Source of the DNA: Bryobacterales bacterium | GTDB lineage: Bacteria; Acidobacteriota; Terriglobia; Bryobacterales; Bryobacteraceae | Direction: 5' to 3' | NCBI GenBank assembly: GCA_019261985.1 | Contig: JAFAQY010000065.1 | Span: 1 to 37,016, forward strand | Length of the DNA: 37,016 nt | Shown: piece after piece, positions 7,320-37,016 of the stretch | Numbering within the stretch: the first letter of the stretch is position 1 | How the letters are laid out: each line of letters opens with the position of its first letter | Translations under genes and position numbers: made by a program | Notes under the pieces: generated by a model | What the model saw: only the letters and a program-made list of their open reading frames with translations | Told to the model about the DNA's origin: nothing | Databases searched by the model: none

Positions 7320-8852
7320 ATGATCGAAGGATGGATGGTTTTTTTGCTTTGCGCGGGAATGGCGGCGGCGCAATCTTCCGGCCGCTTCACCGCGACTGGA
7401 AGCATGATCACACCCCGCTTCTTCCACGCGGCCACCCTGCTTCCGGACGGCAAGGTACTGATTGCTGGGGGAGGCTCGGCGACCGTGGAATTGTATGACC
7501 CCTTCACGGGGATCTTTACCGCGACCGCAGCCAGCACGGCCTCGAAGTTCATCGGTTCTGCCACCCTGCTCCCGGATGGCAGGGTCCTGCTCATCGAAGC
7601 CTTTCGTATTCTGAGCGATGCCTATGACGGAACGTTTCGCTACACAGGAGGTGCGGAGCTGTACGATCCTCGCACGGGGACCGTCTCGGCCACCGGCGAC
7701 ATGATCGAAGGACAACGCGGCTACGCGGCCAACCTGCCCACTAACGGAAAGGTTCTGATTACCGGAAGCGGCTACTACACAGAATCGAACTGCTGCTCAA
7801 AGGCGGCCAACCCGGAGCTGTATGACCCCTCGACTCAGAACTTCAGCTTGGCGGGACCATATGCCGAGACGGGAGCCCGCTCCGAAGCGGGGGTGGCGGG
7901 ACTGCAATTCACCCCGGCCACCCTGCTGCCCGACGGCACGGTCTTGATCGCCTCGGAACCCGCCGCCGAGATCCTCGATCCAGCCACCAACACGTTCCGT
8001 CTCACCGCCAGCATGACCGCCGAAGCTTATGACATTGGTCCGTTTGGCACTAAGCCAGACCATCTTCCTGGCCGCACGGCGACGCTCCTCTTGAATGGAA
8101 AGGTGCTGCTTACGGGCGGCGAACCGGGCTATGGGGATTTCGATACCAGCTACTACACCTTGAACTCTGCCGAGCTGTACGATTTTCTTAGCGGCACATT
8201 CACACCCACCGGCGATATGTCGTTCGCCCGATTCTCGCATGCCGCAACACTCCTTACCGACGGCACGGTCCTGATCACCGGAGGTATCGGCAACCCTTAC
8301 GGTGGTACGCCTGTGGCCGAGCTTTACAACCCCGAAACCGGCGCGTTTTCTGTGGCAGGCAATATGGAATCGGCTCGCGTGTTTCACCAGGCGACGCTGC
8401 TCAGCGATGGCCGGGTACTGATCACGGGAGCAGTGTTATGGCCAGGGGGCGTATCACCAGGGGGCGAAGCGCTCGCCAGCGCGGAAATCTATACGCCGCC
8501 GGTGCGAATCCCCGCGCCGGCGTTATTTTCCTTCTCCGGCGACGGCCAAGGGCAGGGCGCCATCTGGCACGCGGCGACGGGACAGGTCGCATCGGCCGAT
8601 AATCCCGCCAGTGCCGGGGAAGCCCTGTCAATGTATACAAACAATCTTTTAGACGGGGGCGTAGTCCCTCCGCAAGTAGCTGTCGGCGGCCGTCTCGCGG
8701 ATATTTTGTTTTTCGGCCCCGCTCCCGGCTATTCGGGCTACTATCAACTGAATTTCAAAGTACCGGAGGGAATCCTATCAGCCTCCGATGTTTCGGTGCG
8801 GCTAATCTATCTCGGCCGATCCAGCAATGAAGTGACCATAGGTGTGCGATGA
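7320..8852 (+). CDS. Secreted kelch/galactose-oxidase-like beta-propeller protein with Solibacter C-terminal domain
   Basis: A 510-residue exported protein. A short signal peptide (WMVFLLCAGMAAAQ) is followed by tandem kelch-like blades carrying the recurring HAATLLPDGKVLIAGG-AELYDP pattern, which folds as a beta-propeller (residues about 20-400). The C-terminal 100 residues (VAVGGRLADILFFGPAPGYSGYYQLNFKVPEG..SNEVTIGVR) match the TIGR03437-type domain described from Solibacter. No copper-radical residues of galactose oxidase can be claimed, so a binding role at the cell surface is as likely as catalysis. Translation may start at 7320 or at the in-frame ATG 7335, which has a better GAAGG upstream. 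The stop overlaps the next start (ATGA), so the two paralogues are translationally coupled. Confidence 0.85.
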   Translation: MIEGWMVFLLCAGMAAAQSSGRFTATGSMITPRFFHAATLLPDGKVLIAGGGSATVELYDPFTGIFTATAASTASKFIGSATLLPDGRVLLIEAFRILSDAYDGTFRYTGGAELYDPRTGTVSATGDMIEGQRGYAANLPTNGKVLITGSGYYTESNCCSKAANPELYDPSTQNFSLAGPYAETGARSEAGVAGLQFTPATLLPDGTVLIASEPAAEILDPATNTFRLTASMTAEAYDIGPFGTKPDHLPGRTATLLLNGKVLLTGGEPGYGDFDTSYYTLNSAELYDFLSGTFTPTGDMSFARFSHAATLLTDGTVLITGGIGNPYGGTPVAELYNPETGAFSVAGNMESARVFHQATLLSDGRVLITGAVLWPGGVSPGGEALASAEIYTPPVRIPAPALFSFSGDGQGQGAIWHAATGQVASADNPASAGEALSMYTNNLLDGGVVPPQVAVGGRLADILFFGPAPGYSGYYQLNFKVPEGILSASDVSVRLIYLGRSSNEVTIGVR

Positions 8853-10309
8853 ACGGGAAGATCAATCTGCTTATTTCACTGCTGTTGTCCGGCATTGCGG
8901 TCGCGCAGTCGTCTGGCGCGTTTACCTCGACCGGCGCGATGACGACGGCACGTTCCGGGCACACCGCGACACTTCTGAACAACGGCCAGGTATTGATCGC
9001 GGGGGGCGGGCCGAATTTCAATTCGCCCACTGCTACGGCTGAACTCTACGATCCAACGCGGGGCACGTTCACTCCTACGGGCAACATGACCACGCCCCGC
9101 ACTGGGCATACAGCCAGCCTGCTGCCCGATGGGAGAGTAATAATCGCAGGAGGGTACAGTAGCAGCGGTGGCACTCTCACTCTCCTCCAACCGCTAAAGA
9201 CCGCGGAGATATACGATCCTGCCACCGGGATCTTCACCTCTACAGGCGATATGATCCATGCTCGCGCGTGCTCTGCAGCCACTGGGCTGAACAATGGCCA
9301 GATTTTGCTCTCGGGCGGGGTCGGTCCTGGGTTCCGTGTTCTCGATGCGGAGTTCTATGATCCCACGGTCGGCTCGTTCGCTGATGCCGGACCATACGCC
9401 ACCTTCCGAATCGCATTAGAAACCTGCCAAGGGGCTGCTGCGAGCTTGCTCCCAGATGGCCGAGTTTTGATCGTTTGGGAAGACACTTTCGCCGAGATTT
9501 ACGACTCTAAAACAGGCTTGTTCACTCCGGCAGGCAGATCGCCGGAGCTGTCCTACATTGATGGCGTGCCTACAGCGACGTTACTCATGACTGGAAAAGT
9601 CCTGGTGGCGGGTGGAGGAGATGACACCGGCGTTCACAAAAGCGCAGAACTCTTCGACATTTCCACTGGAAGTTTTACTCCTACCGGGGGCATGTCCAGC
9701 GCTCACGCGGGCCACTCAGCTACTCTGCTACCGAACGGAACAGTATTGATTGCCGGTGGCCCTTTTTTGAGTGCCACGACGGAGCTGTATGACCCTGTTT
9801 CAGGTACGTTCCGCACCGGGCCCCAGATGCGGACTGGGCGGTTGGGTCACACGGCCACGTTACTCAACGACGGCAGGGTGTTGATCGCCGGCGGAGAGGC
9901 GAGTTCATTATTAGCTAGTGAAGGCCCCTCATCGCTTGCCGAGCTTTACACTCCAGATGTATTGATTCCGGCTCCTGTCCTTTTTTCCGCAGCAGGCGAT
10001 GGGCAGGCGCAAGGCGCAATTTTGCACGCCGGTACGGCCCGGCTCGTTACGGCTAGCGACCCCGCTGCTGCCGGAGAGGCGGTGGAAATCTACTGCGCAG
10101 GTCTGGCGGAGGGCAGCGCGATCCCACCGCAAGTTGCGATCGGTGGCAGATTGGCCTCGATCTTGTACTTCGGAGACGCTCCAGGTTTCGGCGGTCTCAA
10201 TCAAATCAATGTCCGTGTGCCCGATGGCGTAGCGCCCGGGCCCGCGGTTTCAGTGCGCGTAAGCTATCTCGGCCGGATCAGTAACGAAGTCACCGTGGGT
10301 GTGCGATGA
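8849..10309 (+). CDS. Secreted kelch-like beta-propeller protein, tandem paralogue
   Basis: A 486-residue paralogue of the preceding gene with the same order of parts: signal peptide (INLLISLLLSGIAVAQ), mature start SSGAFTSTGAMTTARSGH, repeated HTATLLNNGQVLIAGG / AELYDP blades, and the same TIGR03437-type end (IGGRLASILYFGDAPGFGGLNQINVRVPDG..SNEVTVGVR). The final 60 codons are very similar at DNA level to those of the upstream gene, so a tandem duplication is clear. It begins in the 4-base overlap ATGA. The function is not known; beta-propellers of this kind bind sugars or proteins outside the cell. Confidence 0.85.
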   Translation: MNGKINLLISLLLSGIAVAQSSGAFTSTGAMTTARSGHTATLLNNGQVLIAGGGPNFNSPTATAELYDPTRGTFTPTGNMTTPRTGHTASLLPDGRVIIAGGYSSSGGTLTLLQPLKTAEIYDPATGIFTSTGDMIHARACSAATGLNNGQILLSGGVGPGFRVLDAEFYDPTVGSFADAGPYATFRIALETCQGAAASLLPDGRVLIVWEDTFAEIYDSKTGLFTPAGRSPELSYIDGVPTATLLMTGKVLVAGGGDDTGVHKSAELFDISTGSFTPTGGMSSAHAGHSATLLPNGTVLIAGGPFLSATTELYDPVSGTFRTGPQMRTGRLGHTATLLNDGRVLIAGGEASSLLASEGPSSLAELYTPDVLIPAPVLFSAAGDGQAQGAILHAGTARLVTASDPAAAGEAVEIYCAGLAEGSAIPPQVAIGGRLASILYFGDAPGFGGLNQINVRVPDGVAPGPAVSVRVSYLGRISNEVTVGVR

Positions 10310-10341
10310 ACAGGAAGATCAATCTGCTTATTCCGAGGTGA
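10306..10341 (+). pseudogene. Twelve-codon remnant of a third tandem kelch gene start
   Basis: The sequence at 10306 repeats the start of the second kelch gene at 8849: the first 27 bases differ at one position, including the ATGA overlap with the preceding stop. It then runs into a stop after MNRKINLLIPR. This is the scar expected where a further tandem copy was lost, or where a duplication ended. Confidence 0.65.
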
Positions 10342-12321: not shown

Positions 12322-12390
12322 TTTGCGGAACTTCACGCACCGCCCAGGCGGGCTAAAGCCCGCCGCAGGCTGAAGCCCGCCCCACATCAG
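12322..12390. repeat. Dispersed palindromic repeat copy
   Basis: TTGCGGAACTTCACG is followed by palindromes GGCGGGCTAAAGCCCGCC and CAGGCTGAAGCCCGCCCCAC. The leading segment recurs at 27339 (TTGCAGAACTTCACG) and, inverted and shortened, at 17239-17253. The copy lies between the IS5 transposase and the superoxide dismutase gene, where it could act as a bidirectional transcription barrier. Confidence 0.7.
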
Positions 12391-12467
12391 CAATTATGTA
12401 TTAGCTTGGAGAACTCCGAAGCCGTGTCAGCAATGCGGCCCCGCTAAACAGGCCCGATATATCCGGA

Positions 12468-17195: not shown

Positions 17196-17254
17196 TGTGG
17201 GGCAGGCTTGAGCCTGCGGCGGGCTTCAGCCCGCCTGAGCGGTTCTGCAATTAA
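17196..17254. repeat. Dispersed palindromic repeat copy
   Basis: GTGGGGCAGGCTTGAGCCTG is followed by CGGCGGGCTTCAGCCCGCC, then TGAGCGGTTCTGCAATTAA. This is the inverted counterpart of the arrangement at 12322-12390 and 27336-27430 (TTGCRGAAC then palindromes, then CCCCAC). It separates the methyltransferase from the quinoprotein gene and may end transcription. Confidence 0.7.
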
Positions 17255-19171: not shown

Positions 19172-19226
19172 TTCAGGTGGCGCGCCTATAATGAGTTCGT
19201 AAGAAAAGCCAGACCGAGGTTTTTGA

Positions 19227-19700
19227 ATGCGACTCTCCAGCAACGCGCCGCCAAACGCGTCGGGTGCGGCGCGATTGCCGCGGATTCATCACGCCGCTCT
19301 GATTGGAGCGTTCCTGACGGCGTCTCTTCTCGCTGTTCCCATGTGGGCGCATCATGGGTCGACGGGATTCGACCGGAATAAACGAGTTCATTTAGTCGGA
19401 AAGGTTAGCCTGCTGGAGTGGAGCAATCCGCATGTAGTAATTCACCTCGATGTGGGCGGAGCGGACGGGAAGATCGATACGTGGCTGGTGAACACTATTC
19501 CTCCGAACACCGCGCGGAGGCAGGGCTCTTCGAAGGATTCGTTCGAGGTAGGAACGGAGATCTCCGTCGACGGCTATCAGGCAAGTGATGGATCGAATCA
19601 CGTCAACGGCGTCATCATTGTGCTCCCGGATGGAAAGAAGATTGTAACTCCCGATTGCTTCGATAATGGGCCGGGTTGCTACCGGCCGGCCGGCCGGTAA
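19227..19700 (+). CDS. DUF6152 family exported protein
   Basis: A 157-residue protein with an N-terminal export signal (AALIGAFLTASLLAVPMWAHH). The mature part begins AHHGSTGFDRNKRVHLVGKVSLLEWSNPHVVIHLDV, the hallmark start of DUF6152 (AHH..FD...L.G.V....W.NPH). The biochemical role is unknown; members are often found beside quinoproteins in Acidobacteriota, as here. Later residues include a CFDNGPGC pair of cysteines near the C-terminus. GAGGT lies just upstream of ATG 19227. Likely co-transcribed with the quinoprotein gene. Confidence 0.78.
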   Translation: MRLSSNAPPNASGAARLPRIHHAALIGAFLTASLLAVPMWAHHGSTGFDRNKRVHLVGKVSLLEWSNPHVVIHLDVGGADGKIDTWLVNTIPPNTARRQGSSKDSFEVGTEISVDGYQASDGSNHVNGVIIVLPDGKKIVTPDCFDNGPGCYRPAGR

Positions 19701-19776
19701 GGCAACCGTATCCGGTAGGCTCCACGTGCTCTCCCCCTGAGCCTTGGAGGATGCCGTCGTGGTGAGATAGTACCGG
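19701..19776 (+). promoter_or_regulatory. Possible structured leader of the DUF202 gene
   Basis: CCGGTA (19712-19717) can pair with TACCGG (19771-19776), the six bases directly before the start codon. GGCTC (19718-19722) can pair with GAGCC (19739-19743) inside it. GTATCC, overlapping the first arm, could instead pair with GGATGC near 19749, so two exclusive folds exist. The fold would hide the start region. No known riboswitch class is recognised. Confidence 0.3.
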
Positions 19777-20178
19777 ATGACCGGCCCGGCAACGATCGGA
19801 GCTTCAGACTATTTAGCCGCCGAACGAACATTTCTCGCGTGGATCCGCACCGGTCTTGCGCTTATGGGGTTCGGTTTCGTGGTCGCCCGTTTCGGCCTGT
19901 TTCTGGAGGTGCTGCAGGCGGAGCAGCACACTCGTCAAGCGCACTCCTACGGTCTGTCGTTCTGGTTTGGCACTGGTCTAATCGTGCTCGGAGTGTTGGT
20001 TAACATCCTGTCCGCATTCAGCCACATTCGTCTGGTGCATCAATTGGAGCGCGGCGGTCCTCCCGCGCATCGTCTCTCCACGCTGGCTGTGGCCGTTTCA
20101 ATAATTCTGGCCGTACTCGGGATGGTGATGGCGGCGTACCTGATCTGGGTTCGCGATCCGGCTACGGCGCATGCGTGA
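19777..20178 (+). CDS. DUF202 small membrane protein
   Basis: A 133-residue inner-membrane protein with three predicted helices (about 28-48, 65-87 and 100-125). The N-terminal block DYLAAERTFLAWIRTGLALMGFGFVVARFGLFL is the family signature of DUF202 (YidH type). The function of these proteins is unknown. It is followed after 18 bases by the DUF302 gene on the same strand. No ordinary ribosome binding site sits near ATG 19777, where the possible leader fold ends. Confidence 0.88.
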   Translation: MTGPATIGASDYLAAERTFLAWIRTGLALMGFGFVVARFGLFLEVLQAEQHTRQAHSYGLSFWFGTGLIVLGVLVNILSAFSHIRLVHQLERGGPPAHRLSTLAVAVSIILAVLGMVMAAYLIWVRDPATAHA

Positions 20179-20196
20179 ACGGTAACGGAGGAATTC

Positions 20197-20592
20197 GTGG
20201 CATCCGAACCCAACAATGGCATCATCTCGATACCGAGTCGTCACTCGGTAGATGAGACCGTAAAAAAGGCTGAAAGTGCCTTCGCTGCGAAAGGCATCAA
20301 ACTATTTTGTCTAGTCGATCACAGCGGAGAGGCTGAAAAAGCCGGAATGCAAATGCCGCCGGCCAAGTTACTAATTTTCGGCAGCCCCAAAGCGGGCACG
20401 CCCGTTATGCTCGCCGCCCCTAGCATTGCACTTGATCTTCCCTTGAAGATGTTGGTTTGGCAAGATAGCTATGGCAAGGTCTGGGTTTCGTATAACAGCA
20501 CCAGCTATTTAAAGGAACGACACGGCGTCTCGCAGGAGCGGATCCAGAATATAGCTGGCATTGACGCGTTGGCGGCCACCGCGGCTGCCTGA
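20197..20592 (+). CDS. DUF302 protein
   Basis: A 131-residue soluble protein of the DUF302 family. The pattern SVDETVKKAESAFAAKGIKLFCLVDHSGEAEKAGMQMPPAKLLIFGSPKAGTPVMLAAPSIALDLPLKMLVWQDSYGKVWVSYN covers nearly the whole length. The family has a ferredoxin-like fold of unknown role and often occurs with small membrane proteins, as with DUF202 here. The GTG start at 20197 is chosen for the GGAGG at 20187-20191. Last gene of a short DUF202-DUF302 unit. Confidence 0.9.
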   Translation: MASEPNNGIISIPSRHSVDETVKKAESAFAAKGIKLFCLVDHSGEAEKAGMQMPPAKLLIFGSPKAGTPVMLAAPSIALDLPLKMLVWQDSYGKVWVSYNSTSYLKERHGVSQERIQNIAGIDALAATAAA

Positions 20593-20847
20593 ATCCACGC
20601 CGCGCCCCGGCGAGTCGGGTTCAACCTTCCCGCGAGTAATCAAGCTGCGGTCGATCCGCTAACCTCCCGCGGCAGGAATCGGTTCCCGCAGGATTGGCGT
20701 ATCCACAGTCAACTCCCGGCATTTCCGCGATGAATTCCTCGCGGCCCCATGACGGCCACTATGGGGCTTACGATCTCGTGGGATGTCGCGAGGGTGGGCC
20801 CGTTCCGTATTCGCGCCAACGGTGCCGCTGAGGAGCCATTGTTTTTT
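20593..20847 (+). other. Gene-free interval holding a solitary CRISPR-repeat-like element, hairpins and a T-run
   Basis: No coding region is supported between the DUF302 stop and the rhodanese stop. The interval holds a near-exact CRISPR repeat copy (20721-20750), an 8-base hairpin directly after it (20743-20750 with 20761-20768 including a wobble), a weaker CTCG..CGAG stem at 20775-20792, and a T6 run at 20842-20847. The T-run is on the plus strand, so it could end a plus-strand transcript. Whether that is the DUF202-DUF302 mRNA or a separate small RNA is open. Confidence 0.5.
20721..20750 (+). repeat. Solitary CRISPR-repeat-like sequence outside the array
   Basis: Read on the plus strand, these 30 bases match the first 30 bases of the reverse-complemented array repeat at 28 positions. 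The differences are C for A at position 18 and C for T at position 27. The last six repeat bases are not conserved (only one match). The hairpin arms CCGCGA and TCGCGG and the central GAATTC are kept. No second repeat is found one spacer length away on either side. The chance of a 28/30 match in unrelated DNA of this size is negligible, so common origin with the array repeat is firm; function is not. Confidence 0.85.
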
Positions 20848-21183
20848 CTAATACCGCGGAATCGAGGAGTCCACGCTTAGGCTCCAGGCCTCGATGCCGC
20901 CGGACATGCTTTGGCAGTTTTCGATGCCCTGCTCGCGAAGCCAGTTTGCTACGTTCAGACTGCGAATCCCGTGGTGGCAATACACGATCAGAGCGCCTTC
21001 ATCCGCACGCGCTTCCAGGGTCTGGAGCGCGGCGGGAATGGCGCGCATCGGAATCAGCTCCGCTCCTTCCAGGCGGGCGAGCGCGTATTCGTGCGGCTCG
21101 CGGACGTCGATCAGGCGCAGCGGCTCCCCGGCATCGCGGCGGGCCTTGATGTCGCGCGGCGAGGCTTCCAATGGCAGAGGCAT
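20848..21183 (-). CDS. Rhodanese-like sulfurtransferase domain protein
   Basis: A 111-residue single-domain rhodanese. LIDVREPHEYALARLEGAELIPM (24-46) is the CH2A-type entry motif, and the active-site Cys69 lies in VYCHHGIRSLNVANWLREQG. The last conserved block is MSGGIEAWSLSVDSSIPRY. Such proteins carry sulfane sulfur on the cysteine for thiolation or detoxification in the cytoplasm. The gene is divergent from a small ORF that begins 18 bases away. Confidence 0.93.
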   Translation of the reverse strand: MPLPLEASPRDIKARRDAGEPLRLIDVREPHEYALARLEGAELIPMRAIPAALQTLEARADEGALIVYCHHGIRSLNVANWLREQGIENCQSMSGGIEAWSLSVDSSIPRY

Positions 21184-21201
21184 AAGCGTACACTAATCAT
21201 T

Positions 21202-29779: not shown

Positions 29780-30164
29780 GCGTTTGAATAAGCAAGGCCG
29801 TTGCCAGTTCACGCCCGATTCATTTCGCGGCGGCTCCGGCAATCGCTTTCGATGCGGCGAGGTTGCACAATTTGCCGGGCCTGCAACGATTCGCGCGAGA
29901 ATTTCCGCCGTCAATTGGGCCGTGCGGGCGCAGTGCGGGTACGCGCGCACAGCAAGGGACGGGGTGAAGGCCGCCGCAGGCTGAAGCCTTCCCCACAGCG
30001 TTTGCATGGGGATAACGCGTCGTAAAACGCGCGGCTTTTTCAAAACATCTACCAGTTGAAGCCCGCCAAATTCGGTACTATGCCGTTCCGGCAACGACCC
30101 CCGAGCAGTACCCGAATAGAGGCGGAGTCTGCTCAAAAGCGCGGCTTCGGAAGGAGTAAATCTC
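29780..30164. other. Divergent intergenic region with a palindromic repeat
   Basis: This 385-base gap separates the zinc peptidase (minus) from the DUF937-OmpA gene (plus). It contains a short dispersed repeat copy at 29961-29999 (GAAGGCCGCCGCAGGCTGAAGCCTTCCCCAC). AAGGAG near 30149 is the ribosome binding site of the plus-strand gene. Both promoters should lie here, but no clear hexamer pair stands out. The open minus-strand frame through this gap is judged non-coding. Confidence 0.5.
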
Positions 30165-32949: not shown

Positions 32950-33819
32950 ATGATTCATTGGATGTATTTCGTGCCGATTTGGCTGTCTGGTGTTCTCTGC
33001 GTATTGGTCGTCTGCGCGTTCGGAATTACCGGGCTACTCGCGACGCGAAGATGGGTTCCGGCGCTTCATGACTCTCCTGTTGGAAACAATGACATTGTTG
33101 GATACTTTTTGAACACCATTACCGTTCTGTATGGCATTACCCTCGGCCTGCTCACAGTCGGCGACTGGTCCAGCCGGACAGAGACACAGGAGAAGGTTGA
33201 TCACGAAGCCAGCGCGCTAGCGGCCTTTTATCTTGATGTCAGCCATTATCCCGAGCCGCATCGCGAACGCCTGCAAGACGATCTGCGGAAATACATCCGC
33301 GAAGTCATCGACGTGGCTTGGCCGGAACAACAGCGGGGCATTATCCAAACGGGCGACGTGGCGACCATTGCGACTCTTGCCAACGATCTTGCGGACTTTG
33401 AGCCCGCGTCGGAAGAGCAAAAAATCCTGCACCAGGAGACGTATAACAGGTTCAACGAACTGGTAGAGCGACGAAGGTCGCGCTTGTTGGGCGTGAGGGC
33501 GGGCCTTTCAGGCGCCTTGTGGGCGCTGATTTTTATCGGCGCGGCGATTACCATCGCGGTGACGTGGTGCTTTAACGTGCGCAATAGGAGAATGCACCTC
33601 TGGATGACGGTCCTGAGCTCGTCACTGCTCGGGCTGATGATTTTCCTCCTCTCGGCAATGGATCATCCATATTTAGGGCCGATATCGGTGTCTCTCGAAC
33701 CTTTCAAAATTATTTACGAGGATTTGATGAAGCCTGGCGCTAGTGCTCCCGATAATCGCGCGCCCTCAGCAGCGCAAACGCCGGTAAAACCACATCGACA
33801 ACCCGAAAACAACAAGTAG
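32950..33819 (+). CDS. DUF4239 (bestrophin-like) membrane protein
   Basis: A 289-residue inner-membrane protein. Two N-terminal helices (about 5-32 and 50-68) and two later helices (about 185-208 and 214-236) enclose a cytosolic helical region; GNNDIVGYFLNTITVLYGITLGLLTV and the E-rich WSSRTETQEKVDHEASALAAFYLDV are typical of DUF4239. The last 30 residues are Pro/Lys-rich and disordered. Some relatives resemble bestrophin channels, but transport is not shown. The start at 32950 gives a membrane helix at once; an upstream ribosome site is weak. It follows the stress cluster on the same strand, about 100 bases after its terminal hairpin. Confidence 0.8.
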   Translation: MIHWMYFVPIWLSGVLCVLVVCAFGITGLLATRRWVPALHDSPVGNNDIVGYFLNTITVLYGITLGLLTVGDWSSRTETQEKVDHEASALAAFYLDVSHYPEPHRERLQDDLRKYIREVIDVAWPEQQRGIIQTGDVATIATLANDLADFEPASEEQKILHQETYNRFNELVERRRSRLLGVRAGLSGALWALIFIGAAITIAVTWCFNVRNRRMHLWMTVLSSSLLGLMIFLLSAMDHPYLGPISVSLEPFKIIYEDLMKPGASAPDNRAPSAAQTPVKPHRQPENNK

Positions 33820-33837
33820 TAACTAAAATCAAAGCCT

Positions 33838-34071
33838 ATGAACATATTTCGGCGCTCGAAAACAACCACATCGTTAACTGGAGTTGCAACATTGGGTTTA
33901 GCCATAGGAGCCACAGCCGTGGGCGCGCTGGCGATCGGCGCCCTGGCGATCGGCGGTCTCGGCATAGTCCGCCTCCGAATTGGAGACGGCAGGATCGAAA
34001 AGCTGAGTATCGGTGAGTTGACGGTGGACAGGCTCATCCTGCGGGAACGGATTCCTGCCGCGGGAGCTTAG
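33838..34071 (+). CDS. Small Gly/Ala-repeat protein
   Basis: A 77-residue protein with a GALAIGALAIGGLGI repeat (about 28-43), predicted as a membrane helix or short beta-solenoid, then RLRIGDGRIEKLSIGELTVDRLIL in which a similar five-residue rhythm continues. Small proteins of this type are widespread but uncharacterised. It starts 18 bases after the DUF4239 stop, so the two are likely co-expressed. No name is assigned. Confidence 0.65.
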   Translation: MNIFRRSKTTTSLTGVATLGLAIGATAVGALAIGALAIGGLGIVRLRIGDGRIEKLSIGELTVDRLILRERIPAAGA

Positions 34072-34251
34072 CCGATCGCCCGCAGCCTGATTTATTTGCA
34101 AGAAGGTGTAAGCGGCCGCTTCCAGGGGTTTCTGCCGGCGCAATGCCTGTTACCCGATGCGGTTGCCTACCGATCCGCGCGCGCTGTTAGGAATAGGGCA
34201 GTTTATCGAAGCAATTGAGAGTTAGTATCCTCTTCCATCCGAGAACACCGT
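34072..34251. other. Left flank of the CRISPR array, no gene seen
   Basis: These 180 bases lie between the small repeat protein and the first array repeat. No ORF, strong promoter or AT-rich leader is evident. This agrees with this side being the trailer end, though the absence of a leader signature is weak evidence by itself. Confidence 0.4.
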
Positions 34252-37016
34252 GCTTCAATGAGGCCGCGATCAATTCATCGCGGAAATTGAAACAGCTCGC
34301 AGGCCGCAACTCATCGGATCTTGCAGCTTCAATGAGGCCGCGGTGAATTCATCGCGGAAATTTACTACAACGATATCCGCGTTCCGCACGCTGCAAGTGC
34401 TTCAATGAGGCCGCGATGAATTCATCGCGGAAATCGAAGCCAAAGCCAATGCCTTCATGAAGGCCGAGACGCTTCAATGAGGCCGCGATGAATTCATCGC
34501 GGAAATGTCTGGTAATAAACCAGACGCTCTTTTCGTTTTATTCCTTCAATGAGGCCGCGATGAATTCATCGCGGAAATGAACTCCGATGGCGCGACGGAC
34601 TGACGCTGCCGGGCCGCACTTCAATGAGGCCGCGATGAATTCATCGCGGAAATCCCAACTCTTCTGCCGTGTATGCAGGAAGGCCGGCGACTTCAATGAG
34701 GCCGCGATGAATTCATCGCGGAAATTACTTCGACCAGACGCCGGGCCTTGACAAGCTCTTTCACTTCAATGAGGCCGCGATGAATTCATCGCGGAAATCG
34801 CTTTGGCCAAGCCAGATTATCCTGCCTGCGCAGGAACTTCAATGAGGCCGCGATGAATTCATCGCGGAAATCGAGCTATACCGCAATGTCGCGATTTTCG
34901 CCCTCTCGACTTCAATGAGGCCGCGATGAATTCATCGCGGAAATAACTGCCAGGTGTCGGGCTACTAAGGGCGGCAATTTACTTCAATGAGGCCGCGATG
35001 AATTCATCGCGGAAATGCAACAGCGCTTCCTTGCGCGCCCGCTGATTATAGAACTTCAATGAGGCCGCGATGAATTCATCGCGGAAATGTCAGCGATTCA
35101 CGGCAGAATGCCTCATGGTTGTAACTTCAATGAGGCCGCGATGAATTCATCGCGGAAATCCAACGGCTTGATCAATGGCGCGACAGGAAGCCTGAACTTC
35201 AATGAGGCCGCGATGAATTCATCGCGGAAATGAGCTGTGCGGCCTCCGCTGGCGCCGGGTGAATCTACTTCAATGAGGCCGCGATGAATTCATCGCGGAA
35301 ATATCGGAGACCCTATTGAGATCTCCGACCCGGTACGACTTCAATGAGGCCGCGATGAATTCATCGCGGAAATGCGATCTATGGCGCGGAAATCGAGCAG
35401 GCCGAGAAAACTTCAATGAGGCCGCGATGAATTCATCGCGGAAATTCCAAGTACGGCGGAAGGAATCGCGCAAACGGCTACCACTTCAATGAGGCCGCGA
35501 TGAATTCATCGCGGAAATTTACTTCGGCTTTTCTGCCCTGGCGGAGGCCCGCGCACTTCAATGAGGCCGCGATGAATTCATCGCGGAAATGCCAGCCGGG
35601 AACCGGATTAAGCTCGGCGCTGACGTACTTCAATGAGGCCGCGATGAATTCATCGCGGAAATAGTAACACATATTACAGAGTTCTAGCTGAACCCTTCAC
35701 TTCAATGAGGCCGCGATGAATTCATCGCGGAAATGCGGTCCTTGCTGGCCGTGCAGGAATCGATAAGGCAACTTCAATGAGGCCGCGATGAATTCATCGC
35801 GGAAATATTTGCAACATGGACAATACGCTCTACTGGCTGGGATCACTTCAATGAGGCCGCGATGAATTCATCGCGGAAATTCCATTCGCGCCGCGGGCGA
35901 TGGTGCTGGTTATGGCGCACTTCAATGAGGCCGCGATGAATTCATCGCGGAAATCAGGCGCAAACAACACGACCGGAGTGGCCGGCCATACTTCAATGAG
36001 GCCGCGATGAATTCATCGCGGAAATGTCAACGCCCTCCGGCACATCGCCGGGGAAGCTGACAACTTCAATGAGGCCGCGATGAATTCATCGCGGAAATGA
36101 CTTGGACAAGTGGATTGAGCAAAGGAAGAGTTTTTACTTCAATGAGGCCGCGATGAATTCATCGCGGAAATATGCCCAACGTGGCAAGGTCCAACTGAGA
36201 AGGTTCGACTTCAATGAGGCCGCGATGAATTCATCGCGGAAATAACCGGCAGCGCGGCGGGGGATCACGCCGGGGCCGACTACTTCAATGAGGCCGCGAT
36301 GAATTCATCGCGGAAATTTACGATCAGGCCGACGGAGTTTTCCGGCATTCCCTGACTTCAATGAGGCCGCGATGAATTCATCGCGGAAATGGCGTGTTCC
36401 TCAAGGTGCAACTCAGCCAGGAGATGATCACTTCAATGAGGCCGCGATGAATTCATCGCGGAAATACCGCTCGAATTAACGATATACTTTGCGTTGTAAA
36501 GGACTTCAATGAGGCCGCGATGAATTCATCGCGGAAATCACAACAGAACCGACTCCAACCGTTTCAGACTGGCACTTCAATGAGGCCGCGATGAATTCAT
36601 CGCGGAAATAGCGCTGCCTGTTGCGCCATCATTGAGGCTTCGGTACTTCAATGAGGCCGCGATGAATTCATCGCGGAAATTAGAGCGCTGCATGCTCGGC
36701 GATCCTGGCGCATTGCCAACTTCAATGAGGCCGCGATGAATTCATCGCGGAAATGTGGAGGCTCGGCCTTGTGCCGCTTTCCCCGGAGGTCACTTCAATG
36801 AGGCCGCGATGAATTCATCGCGGAAATGATGATAACTGGATGGGCACACTATGCGGATCATCAACTTCAATGAGGCCGCGATGAATTCATCGCGGAAATG
36901 GGCTGAATTGTGTACGTTCCCCGCGGCAGCGGACCACTTCAATGAGGCCGCGATGAATTCATCGCGGAAATGTCGCGATTCACGAGGTTGCCCATCACGA
37001 GGTTGGAACTTCAATG
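34252..37016 (-). CRISPR. CRISPR array, 38 complete repeats plus one cut by the window end
   Basis: The repeat is 36 bases. On the plus strand it begins ACTTCAATGAGG and continues with the palindrome CCGCGATGAATTCATCGCGG and then AAAT. There are 38 full copies (first 34252-34287, last 36936-36971) and a 9-base start at 37008. The 38 spacers are 35-39 bases, mostly 36-37, and I see no duplicates. Repeats 1-5 differ: G at position 1 in repeats 1-4, C in repeat 5, plus internal changes in repeat 1 (C for G at position 20) and repeat 2 (G for A at position 18). Repeats 6-38 are identical. Decay at the left and an ATTGAAG(C/T) 3' end on the minus strand, like the usual type I/III crRNA handle, suggest minus-strand transcription. 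No cas genes are in the window, so the subtype is not assigned. Confidence 0.97.

What the first reader, a model, noticed from the sequence alone, without database searches (positions are those of the whole stretch)
20721..20750. Solitary CRISPR repeat copy 13.5 kb outside the array
Thirty bases in the DUF302-rhodanese gap match the reverse-complemented array repeat at 28 positions, keeping both hairpin arms and the central GAATTC, with no partner repeat one spacer away. A lone, conserved repeat away from an array can be a relic of a lost array, a scar of off-target Cas1-Cas2 integration, or a functional repeat or anti-repeat of a guide, tracr-like or regulatory RNA (compare CreR/CreA-type and tracr-L RNAs). 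Retained palindromy argues against simple decay, but cannot exclude a recent event.
Basis: partly seen in the sequence, partly recalled or inferred. Interest (0 to 1): 0.85.

Follow-up and report, generated by a model that had tools for sequence, protein, structure and literature searches.

The report
Stray CRISPR repeat at rearrangement scar
A single worn copy of this bacterium's CRISPR repeat sits 13.5 kb from its array beside broken copies of the DNA that borders the array, so it looks like a leftover of an old local DNA rearrangement and not a working RNA.

Summary
20721-20750 matches the array repeat at 28 of 30 positions and is the only copy outside the array within 3 mismatches in the 6.49 Mb assembly. 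The system is type I-G.

The 651 bp bordering the array's distal end have only two other matches in the assembly, both inverted and at the lone-repeat locus. One (20624-20715, 84%) is the 3' end of the small gene beside the array and stops 5 bp from the lone repeat. The other (19620-19717, 75%) matches a broken DUF6152 3' end that stops 3 bp before the array's terminal repeat. Each locus keeps one gene whole and one cut, each cut at a CRISPR repeat.

The lone copy differs from the array repeat no more than the adjacent gene remnant does. It has a broken hairpin pair, a damaged handle and no partner repeat, and no repeat was found at rhodanese or DUF302 loci fetched from relatives.

Verdict: a decaying relic at a rearrangement breakpoint. 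Partnerless single repeats also occur in relatives. "Retained palindromy" gives no evidence of selection. A functional ectopic repeat is unlikely but not excluded.

The parts
20721..20756 (+). Lone type I-G CRISPR repeat in the array's transcribed orientation; 28/30 over 20721-20750, the last six bases (crRNA handle) diverged
20624..20715 (-). Remnant of the 3' end of the small hydrophobic gene (reads ...ELTVDTPILREPIPAAGG*), 84% identical to 34015-34107; truncated 5 bp from the lone repeat
19620..19717 (+). 3' end of the whole DUF6152 gene and 17 bp beyond; 75% identical (inverted) to 34248-34151 beside the array
19227..19700 (+). DUF6152 gene (PF19649), full-length copy
19777..20178 (+). DUF202 gene (PF02656)
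20197..20592 (+). DUF302 gene (PF03625)
20848..21183 (-). Rhodanese-domain gene (PF00581)
33838..34071 (+). Small 77-aa hydrophobic-repeat protein gene, full-length copy; no Pfam or PHROG match; relatives at 50-52% protein identity in 3 of 60 genomes
34151..34248 (-). Broken 3' end of a DUF6152-like gene, with small indels; homology stops 3 bp before the array's terminal repeat
34252..36971 (-). Type I-G CRISPR array, 38 full 36-nt repeats in the window, spacers 35-39 bp; taken to continue on contig C122 (1-123), followed there by cas4/1, cas2 and further cas genes

Best explanation
The lone repeat is a decaying relic with no present function. It marks a breakpoint of an old local duplication and rearrangement of the type I-G CRISPR locus. 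SHOWN: the DNA beside the lone repeat and the DNA beside the array's terminal repeat are degenerate copies of one block (DUF6152 ... small gene) in inverted orientation 13.5 kb apart; each copy is cut within 3-5 bp of a CRISPR repeat, and a different gene is cut in each; the lone copy has changed about as much as its neighbouring remnant. INFERRED: a CRISPR array, or the cas-array module with repeats at its edges, once lay between two tandem copies of that block. An inversion of the segment 20757-34251, either by recombination between the two inverted repeats or with one breakpoint at the repeat, left one repeat stranded. Flipping that segment on paper gives [DUF6152 ... cut small gene]-repeat-[cut DUF6152 ... 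small gene], two direct tandem copies separated by exactly one CRISPR repeat. The stranded copy has since drifted.
For: A search of the whole 6.49 Mb assembly with the 651-bp array flank gives only two other matches, both at the lone locus. One ends 5 bp from the lone repeat; the counterpart of the other ends 3 bp from the array's terminal repeat. The reverse query with 19172-20620 gives the array flank back and nothing else apart from a self-palindrome. Divergence of the lone copy (2/30, or 5/36 with the gap) does not differ from that of the adjacent small-gene remnant (15/93; Fisher P 0.24 and 1.0). A long array and the main I-G cas genes are present elsewhere, so immunity need not rest on the lone copy. 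No partner repeat. No promoter-like site in 20500-21000, though only 0.2 are expected by chance, so this is weak. The flank block is absent as DNA (E <= 0.001) from 60 relatives. No rhodanese or DUF302 locus fetched from relatives has a repeat. An exact scan of 84,980 species genomes for the core found two stretches, both arrays of 9-10 copies, no solitary one. Elsewhere in the family, 15 stretches around single-looking repeats include 6 with a clear partner remnant one unit away, 2 borderline and 7 with none, so stray repeats, some of them plainly decayed arrays, are ordinary here.
Against: Against the 75%-identical DUF6152 flank the 30-base core is somewhat better preserved (2/30 v 25/100, P = 0.04; not for the whole 36 nt, P = 0.24), which could hint at constraint or at a later origin. 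The order small-gene remnant then repeat is not a plain copy of the array flank, so two or more events are needed. No relative searched keeps an intermediate arrangement. The breakpoints are as blastn scoring gives them; looser scoring draws the DUF6152 alignment some 30 gapped bases further, into the terminal repeat. One lone-copy change (T to C at position 27) is the state in 14 of the 24 genomes that the cut listing shows (9 have T, 1 has G), so the copy may stem from an older or different array. In the 140-nt RNA fold a 5-bp remnant of the repeat hairpin still forms. Array and cas genes lie on two contigs, and their adjacency is inferred.
Confidence: 0.77

Rival explanations
1. The lone repeat is the last trace of a separate, independently lost array (second locus or older system), and the neighbouring flank duplication is incidental.
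For: Position 27 is C, as in 14 of the 24 family genomes listed (cut listing). Relatives hold decayed mini-arrays and partnerless single repeats, so array loss looks common in the family.
Against: The only two other copies of the array flank in the assembly lie at this very locus, one ending 5 bp from the repeat. No second decayed repeat is detectable.
Confidence: 0.12
2. It is a functional ectopic repeat: a CreA-like or scaRNA-like guide that loads host Cascade and represses a nearby target.
For: Correct orientation and core. Ectopic repeats are described as degenerated, and one-repeat CreA genes exist (PMC9458426, passages read).
Against: The sequence after the repeat (20751-20796) has no match of 10 or more bases in 20300-21200, the 1.6 kb upstream of and into csb1, the leader or the array trailer (best 9 bases). 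The cas genes are on another contig, beyond the array. No promoter-like site (weak). Handle damaged. No conservation seen.
Confidence: 0.04
3. It is a host-held or stranded solitary repeat unit (Racr-like): an RNA that mimics the repeat and sequesters Csb2/Cas7.
For: Racrs are solitary repeats (PMC10651486, passages read). Csb2 binds the I-G hairpin alone (PMC9638904, passages read). A few viral contigs hold single I-G repeats. A 5-bp remnant of the repeat hairpin forms in the 140-nt fold.
Against: 21 proteins of the window searched with Pfam and/or PHROGs named no phage structural, integrase or plasmid function. Viral contigs held no exact copy of this core. One hairpin pair is broken, and a separate 8-9 bp hairpin takes up the bases just after the repeat stem; in the 70-nt fold it replaces the repeat hairpin. 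No promoter-like site (weak).
Confidence: 0.04
4. It is a scar of off-target Cas1-Cas2 integration, for example of a prespacer taken from the array itself.
For: The matched stretch (30 bp) is near spacer length (35-39 bp).
Against: The integrase copies its target site and does not deposit a repeat unless the prespacer came from an array (established knowledge, recalled). The match starts exactly at a repeat boundary. The truncated gene copies at the two loci are not explained. Flanking target-site duplications were looked for by eye only.
Confidence: 0.03

Closest known systems
Decayed or remnant CRISPR arrays (degenerate terminal or isolated repeats)
   Same: A degenerate repeat of the host's own type without a functional array, with damage in hairpin and handle
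   Different: Only one unit remains, and it sits at the junction of a truncated duplicate of the array's border
CreTA (CRISPR-regulated toxin-antitoxin) ectopic repeats
   Same: Repeat outside the array, degenerated, in a type I system
   Different: No second pseudo-repeat, no spacer-like match of 10 or more bases in the stretches compared, not in the cas locus, no toxin-RNA evidence
Racr / solitary repeat units of phages and plasmids
   Same: A single intergenic repeat matching the host's subtype
   Different: Chromosomal gene neighbourhood without a recognised mobile element, no promoter-like site, imperfect hairpin
Chromosome rearrangements with breakpoints at CRISPR loci (recalled for Thermotoga; not found in the held library by the searches)
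   Same: Breaks of gene blocks coincide with CRISPR repeats in inverted orientation
   Different: Small local event (13.5 kb) combined with duplication; inferred, not observed between strains

Membership tests
CRISPR array relic | Repeat clearly derived from the host's CRISPR repeat, beyond chance | tested here: met
   28/30, only copy outside the array at up to 3 mismatches; chance about 4.5e-8
CRISPR array relic | Divergence like neutral neighbouring DNA | tested here: met
   2/30 or 5/36 v 15/93 in the adjacent remnant, P 0.24 and 1.0; less clear against the DUF6152 flank (25/100), P 0.04 and 0.24
CRISPR array relic | A second decayed repeat one unit away | tested here: not met
   Gap flanks score no better than shuffles; 7 of 15 relatives' single-looking repeats also lack one. 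A relic may keep one unit, so this is not a strict requirement and does not exclude the filing
CreTA (creA) | One or two degenerated repeats plus a spacer-like stretch partly complementary to a nearby creT promoter | tested here: not met
   Longest match of the downstream stretch 9 bases (gap and leader), none of 8 or more in the trailer or the csb1 upstream stretch; second repeat absent
CreTA (creA) | Transcribed, Cas6-processed RNA | not testable with these tools
   No RNA data; no promoter-like site, with 0.2 expected
Racr / solitary repeat unit | Encoded on a phage, prophage or plasmid | tested here: not met
   No mobile-element gene named among 21 window proteins searched; no hit for the gap in plasmids; none for the core in viral contigs
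Racr / solitary repeat unit | Single intergenic repeat similar to the host's repeat | tested here: met
Racr / solitary repeat unit | RNA binds Cas6/Cas7 and blocks immunity | not testable with these tools
   Folding is ambiguous: repeat hairpin reduced to 5 bp in the 140-nt fold, lost in the 70-nt fold
tracr-L or other type II/V anti-repeat RNA | Host has a tracrRNA-using system | tested here: inconclusive
   The only Cas1 found belongs to a type I-G locus; cas9 and cas12 were not searched

The most novel reading that the evidence does not exclude
The lone repeat is still made as a short RNA whose I-G hairpin is bound by Csb2, so that the host carries its own weak decoy or guide for its CRISPR system outside the array.
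Probability: 0.05. Interest if true: 0.6.

Novelty: new member of a known kind. Interest (0 to 1): 0.25.

Why it matters
It shows that a well-kept solitary repeat, of the sort now mined for Racr or CreA candidates, can be a plain relic, and that reading the DNA beside it (here a broken copy of the array's own border) can largely settle the matter. It is also a small example of CRISPR repeats lying at the breakpoints of a local duplication and inversion, a way in which CRISPR loci may shift and shed repeats.

Tried and rejected
Chance match: rejected. Second hidden repeat in the gap: not found. The small gene's relatives in 3 of 60 genomes showed no DUF6152 neighbour in 1.5 kb flanks. The 37 spacers of the window against the window and the first 20 kb of C122: best alignments of 11-16 bases, E 0.019 or more; gap flanks against spacers: 7-13 bases, E 0.097 or more; no further genome DNA was compared with the spacers. 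Known RNA family: none at the gathering threshold. Relatives of the gap in plasmids: none. A similar-looking lone copy 13.1 kb from the array of G072, at first a hint of conserved geometry, turned out to be a decayed array of three or more units. Viral contigs with single I-G repeats were followed only to their repeat context; 10 ORFs gave no PHROG match, possibly wrong reading frames. Literature searches for CRISPR repeats at inversion breakpoints and for isolated or lone CRISPR repeats (listings only, except as follows) gave no direct precedent; two papers opened for this (passages) tie their inversions to rRNA operons and to an insertion element.

Full report
OBSERVATION. The array in the window runs from 34252 to 36971 and beyond (38 full repeats of 36 nt, spacers of 35-39 bp). 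It is taken to go on at the start of contig C122 (two more repeats), followed there by a cas4/1 fusion, cas2, a Cas3-extension-family gene, cas3, csb2 and csb1; NCBIfam assigns all of these to type I-G except cas2, which matches the general cas2 model. Degenerate repeats lie at the low-coordinate end and the cas genes beyond the other end, so the array is read on the minus strand and the repeat in RNA sense is ATTTCCGCGATGAATTCATCGCGGCCTCATTGAAG(C/T). The lone copy is at 20721-20750 in RNA sense on the plus strand, 28 of 30, and is the only copy outside the array within three mismatches of either pattern searched in the 6.49 Mb assembly. The next best 30-mer in the window outside the array has 20 matches.

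ANATOMY. Published work on type I-G (PMC9638904, passages read) finds that Csb2 cuts a 36-nt repeat 4 nt 3' of a 7-bp hairpin, leaving an 8-nt handle. The array repeat here fits that plan: hairpin CCGCGATG-AATT-CATCGCGG, then CCTC, then ATTGAAGC or ATTGAAGT. The lone copy has one hairpin pair broken without compensation and reads ATGACGGC where the handle should be. RNA folds of the plus strand show an extra 8-9 bp hairpin, GGCCCCAU...AUGGGGCU, that takes up the bases just after the repeat stem. In the 70-nt fold (20721-20790) it replaces the repeat hairpin; in the 140-nt fold (20711-20850) a 5-bp remnant of the repeat hairpin stands beside it, though not in the centroid. Energies are only modestly below shuffles (z -1.8 and -1.5; minus strand -0.9 and -0.1). 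No promoter-like site was found in 20500-21000, where 0.2 are expected by chance, so this says little. No second repeat is detectable on either side.

THE FLANKS. The key result came from searching the genome with the array's border. The 651 bp before the array (33600-34250) have two other matches in the whole assembly: 20715-20624 (84%) and 19717-19620 (75%), both inverted. The first is the 3' end of a 77-aa gene (33838-34071), reading ELTVDTPILREPIPAAGG* at the lone locus and ELTVDRLILRERIPAAGA* at the array; homology stops at 20715, and the lone repeat begins at 20721. The second pairs the 3' end of the whole DUF6152 gene (19227-19700) with a broken copy that ends at 34248, three bases before the terminal repeat at 34252. 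Looser scoring draws this alignment some 30 gapped bases into the terminal repeat, so the exact edge depends on scoring. A reverse search with 19172-20620 finds only the array border and a self-palindrome, so the missing parts are not in the assembly at this sensitivity. Hence the array side keeps the small gene whole and DUF6152 cut; the lone side keeps DUF6152 whole and the small gene cut; each cut lies within 3-5 bp of a CRISPR repeat.

MODEL. Turning the segment 20757-34251 round on paper places the cut DUF6152 copy directly after the lone repeat, giving two direct copies of the block with one CRISPR repeat at their junction. This suggests (inference) a CRISPR module lying between tandem copies, then an inversion that stranded one repeat. 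Other orders of events are possible, and no relative searched retains an intermediate: the block (33830-34249) has no DNA match at E <= 0.001 in 60 relatives. Rhodanese and DUF302 homologues were fetched from relatives (29 and 6 loci, flanks about 1.5 kb); none has DUF302 and rhodanese together, and none has anything closer than 6 mismatches to the family repeat motif. An exact scan of 84,980 species genomes for the core found two stretches, both arrays (records of the own genome may be left out there).

DECAY OR SELECTION. The lone copy's changes (2/30; 5/36 allowing one gap) do not differ from those of the adjacent remnant (15/93; P 0.24 and 1.0). Against the DUF6152 flank (25/100) the 30-base core is somewhat better kept (P 0.04), the 36-nt whole is not (P 0.24). 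Two random changes in 30 bases hit at most one of the 16 paired bases 72% of the time, so palindromy carries no evidence of selection. One change (T to C at position 27) is the state in 14 of the 24 family genomes shown in the cut listing (9 have T, 1 has G), compatible with origin from an older version of the array or from another one.

HOW COMMON. In the family, 51 of 237 genomes, the own one included, hold this repeat family at up to 3 mismatches. I read 15 stretches around single-looking copies in relatives: 6 have a clear partner remnant one unit away (3 or fewer mismatches in 14; random stretches reach this in under 1%), 2 a borderline one, and 7 none, one of these cut by a contig end. 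Stray single repeats are therefore ordinary here. The 15 were chosen from listings that were cut short, so they are not a complete sample, and two of them lie on one contig.

KNOWN FUNCTIONS CONSIDERED. CreA genes have one or two degenerated repeats and a spacer-like stretch matching a nearby promoter (PMC9458426, passages read); here the longest match of the downstream stretch is 9 bases in the four stretches compared, and the site is away from the cas genes. Racrs are solitary repeats on mobile elements (PMC10651486, passages read); no mobile-element gene was named among 21 window proteins searched, and no viral contig holds this exact core. Both remain possible in principle, since no RNA data exist.

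VERDICT. A real but ordinary relic, made worth noting by its position at the breakpoint of a duplicated and inverted array border.

Noticed in passing
L067 16053-18621 (relative G072): One I-G array changes repeat register part-way: from 17210 on, the units share a TTT before ATTTCC and lose the constant AAG(C) after CATTG, as if the duplicated unit had shifted by about 3-4 bases.
   Followed up: no
L070 1548-1581 and 4448-4481 (relative G084): A near-perfect I-G repeat lies in frame near the N-terminus of an ORF that looks by eye like a HigA/ImmA-type antitoxin (MNTDFRDRPIAAALKP...), in two copies of a 2.9-kb tandem unit (98.5% identical); no other copy within 3 mismatches in that assembly.
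   Followed up: partly
L082 2636, L083 178 (same flanks), L084 4681, L091 794 (IMG/VR contigs): Viral contigs with a single I-G repeat with hairpin and handle, candidate I-G solitary repeat units. Ten ORFs from L082, L084, L088 and L091 had no PHROG match, so viral origin was not confirmed.
   Followed up: partly
L088 1186-1325 (IMG/VR contig): Two I-G repeats around one spacer, followed directly by a G+C-rich hairpin and a run of T: a one-spacer mini-array with a terminator-like end.
   Followed up: no
L069 3282-3315 (relative G078): An intact-looking I-G repeat (0 mismatches to the family pattern) in a 98% complete genome with no other copy within 3 mismatches; it lies at the meeting point of two converging ORFs and seems to cut short the smaller one.
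   Followed up: partly
34252-34578 against 34618-36971: The four trailer-end repeats start with G and the fifth with C on the + strand, all later ones with A: the terminal base of the repeat changed during growth of the array.
   Followed up: no
7320-10309: Two adjacent ORFs (510 and 486 aa) built of the same degenerate repeats, with 84%-identical 91-bp ends at 8785-8875 and 10242-10332; the first matches phrog_16216.
   Followed up: no
1720-1831, 12344-12392, 17200-17240, 29955-30003, and C122 2087-2124: Dispersed G+C-rich palindromic element (...GGCGGGCTGAAGCCCGCC...).
   Followed up: no
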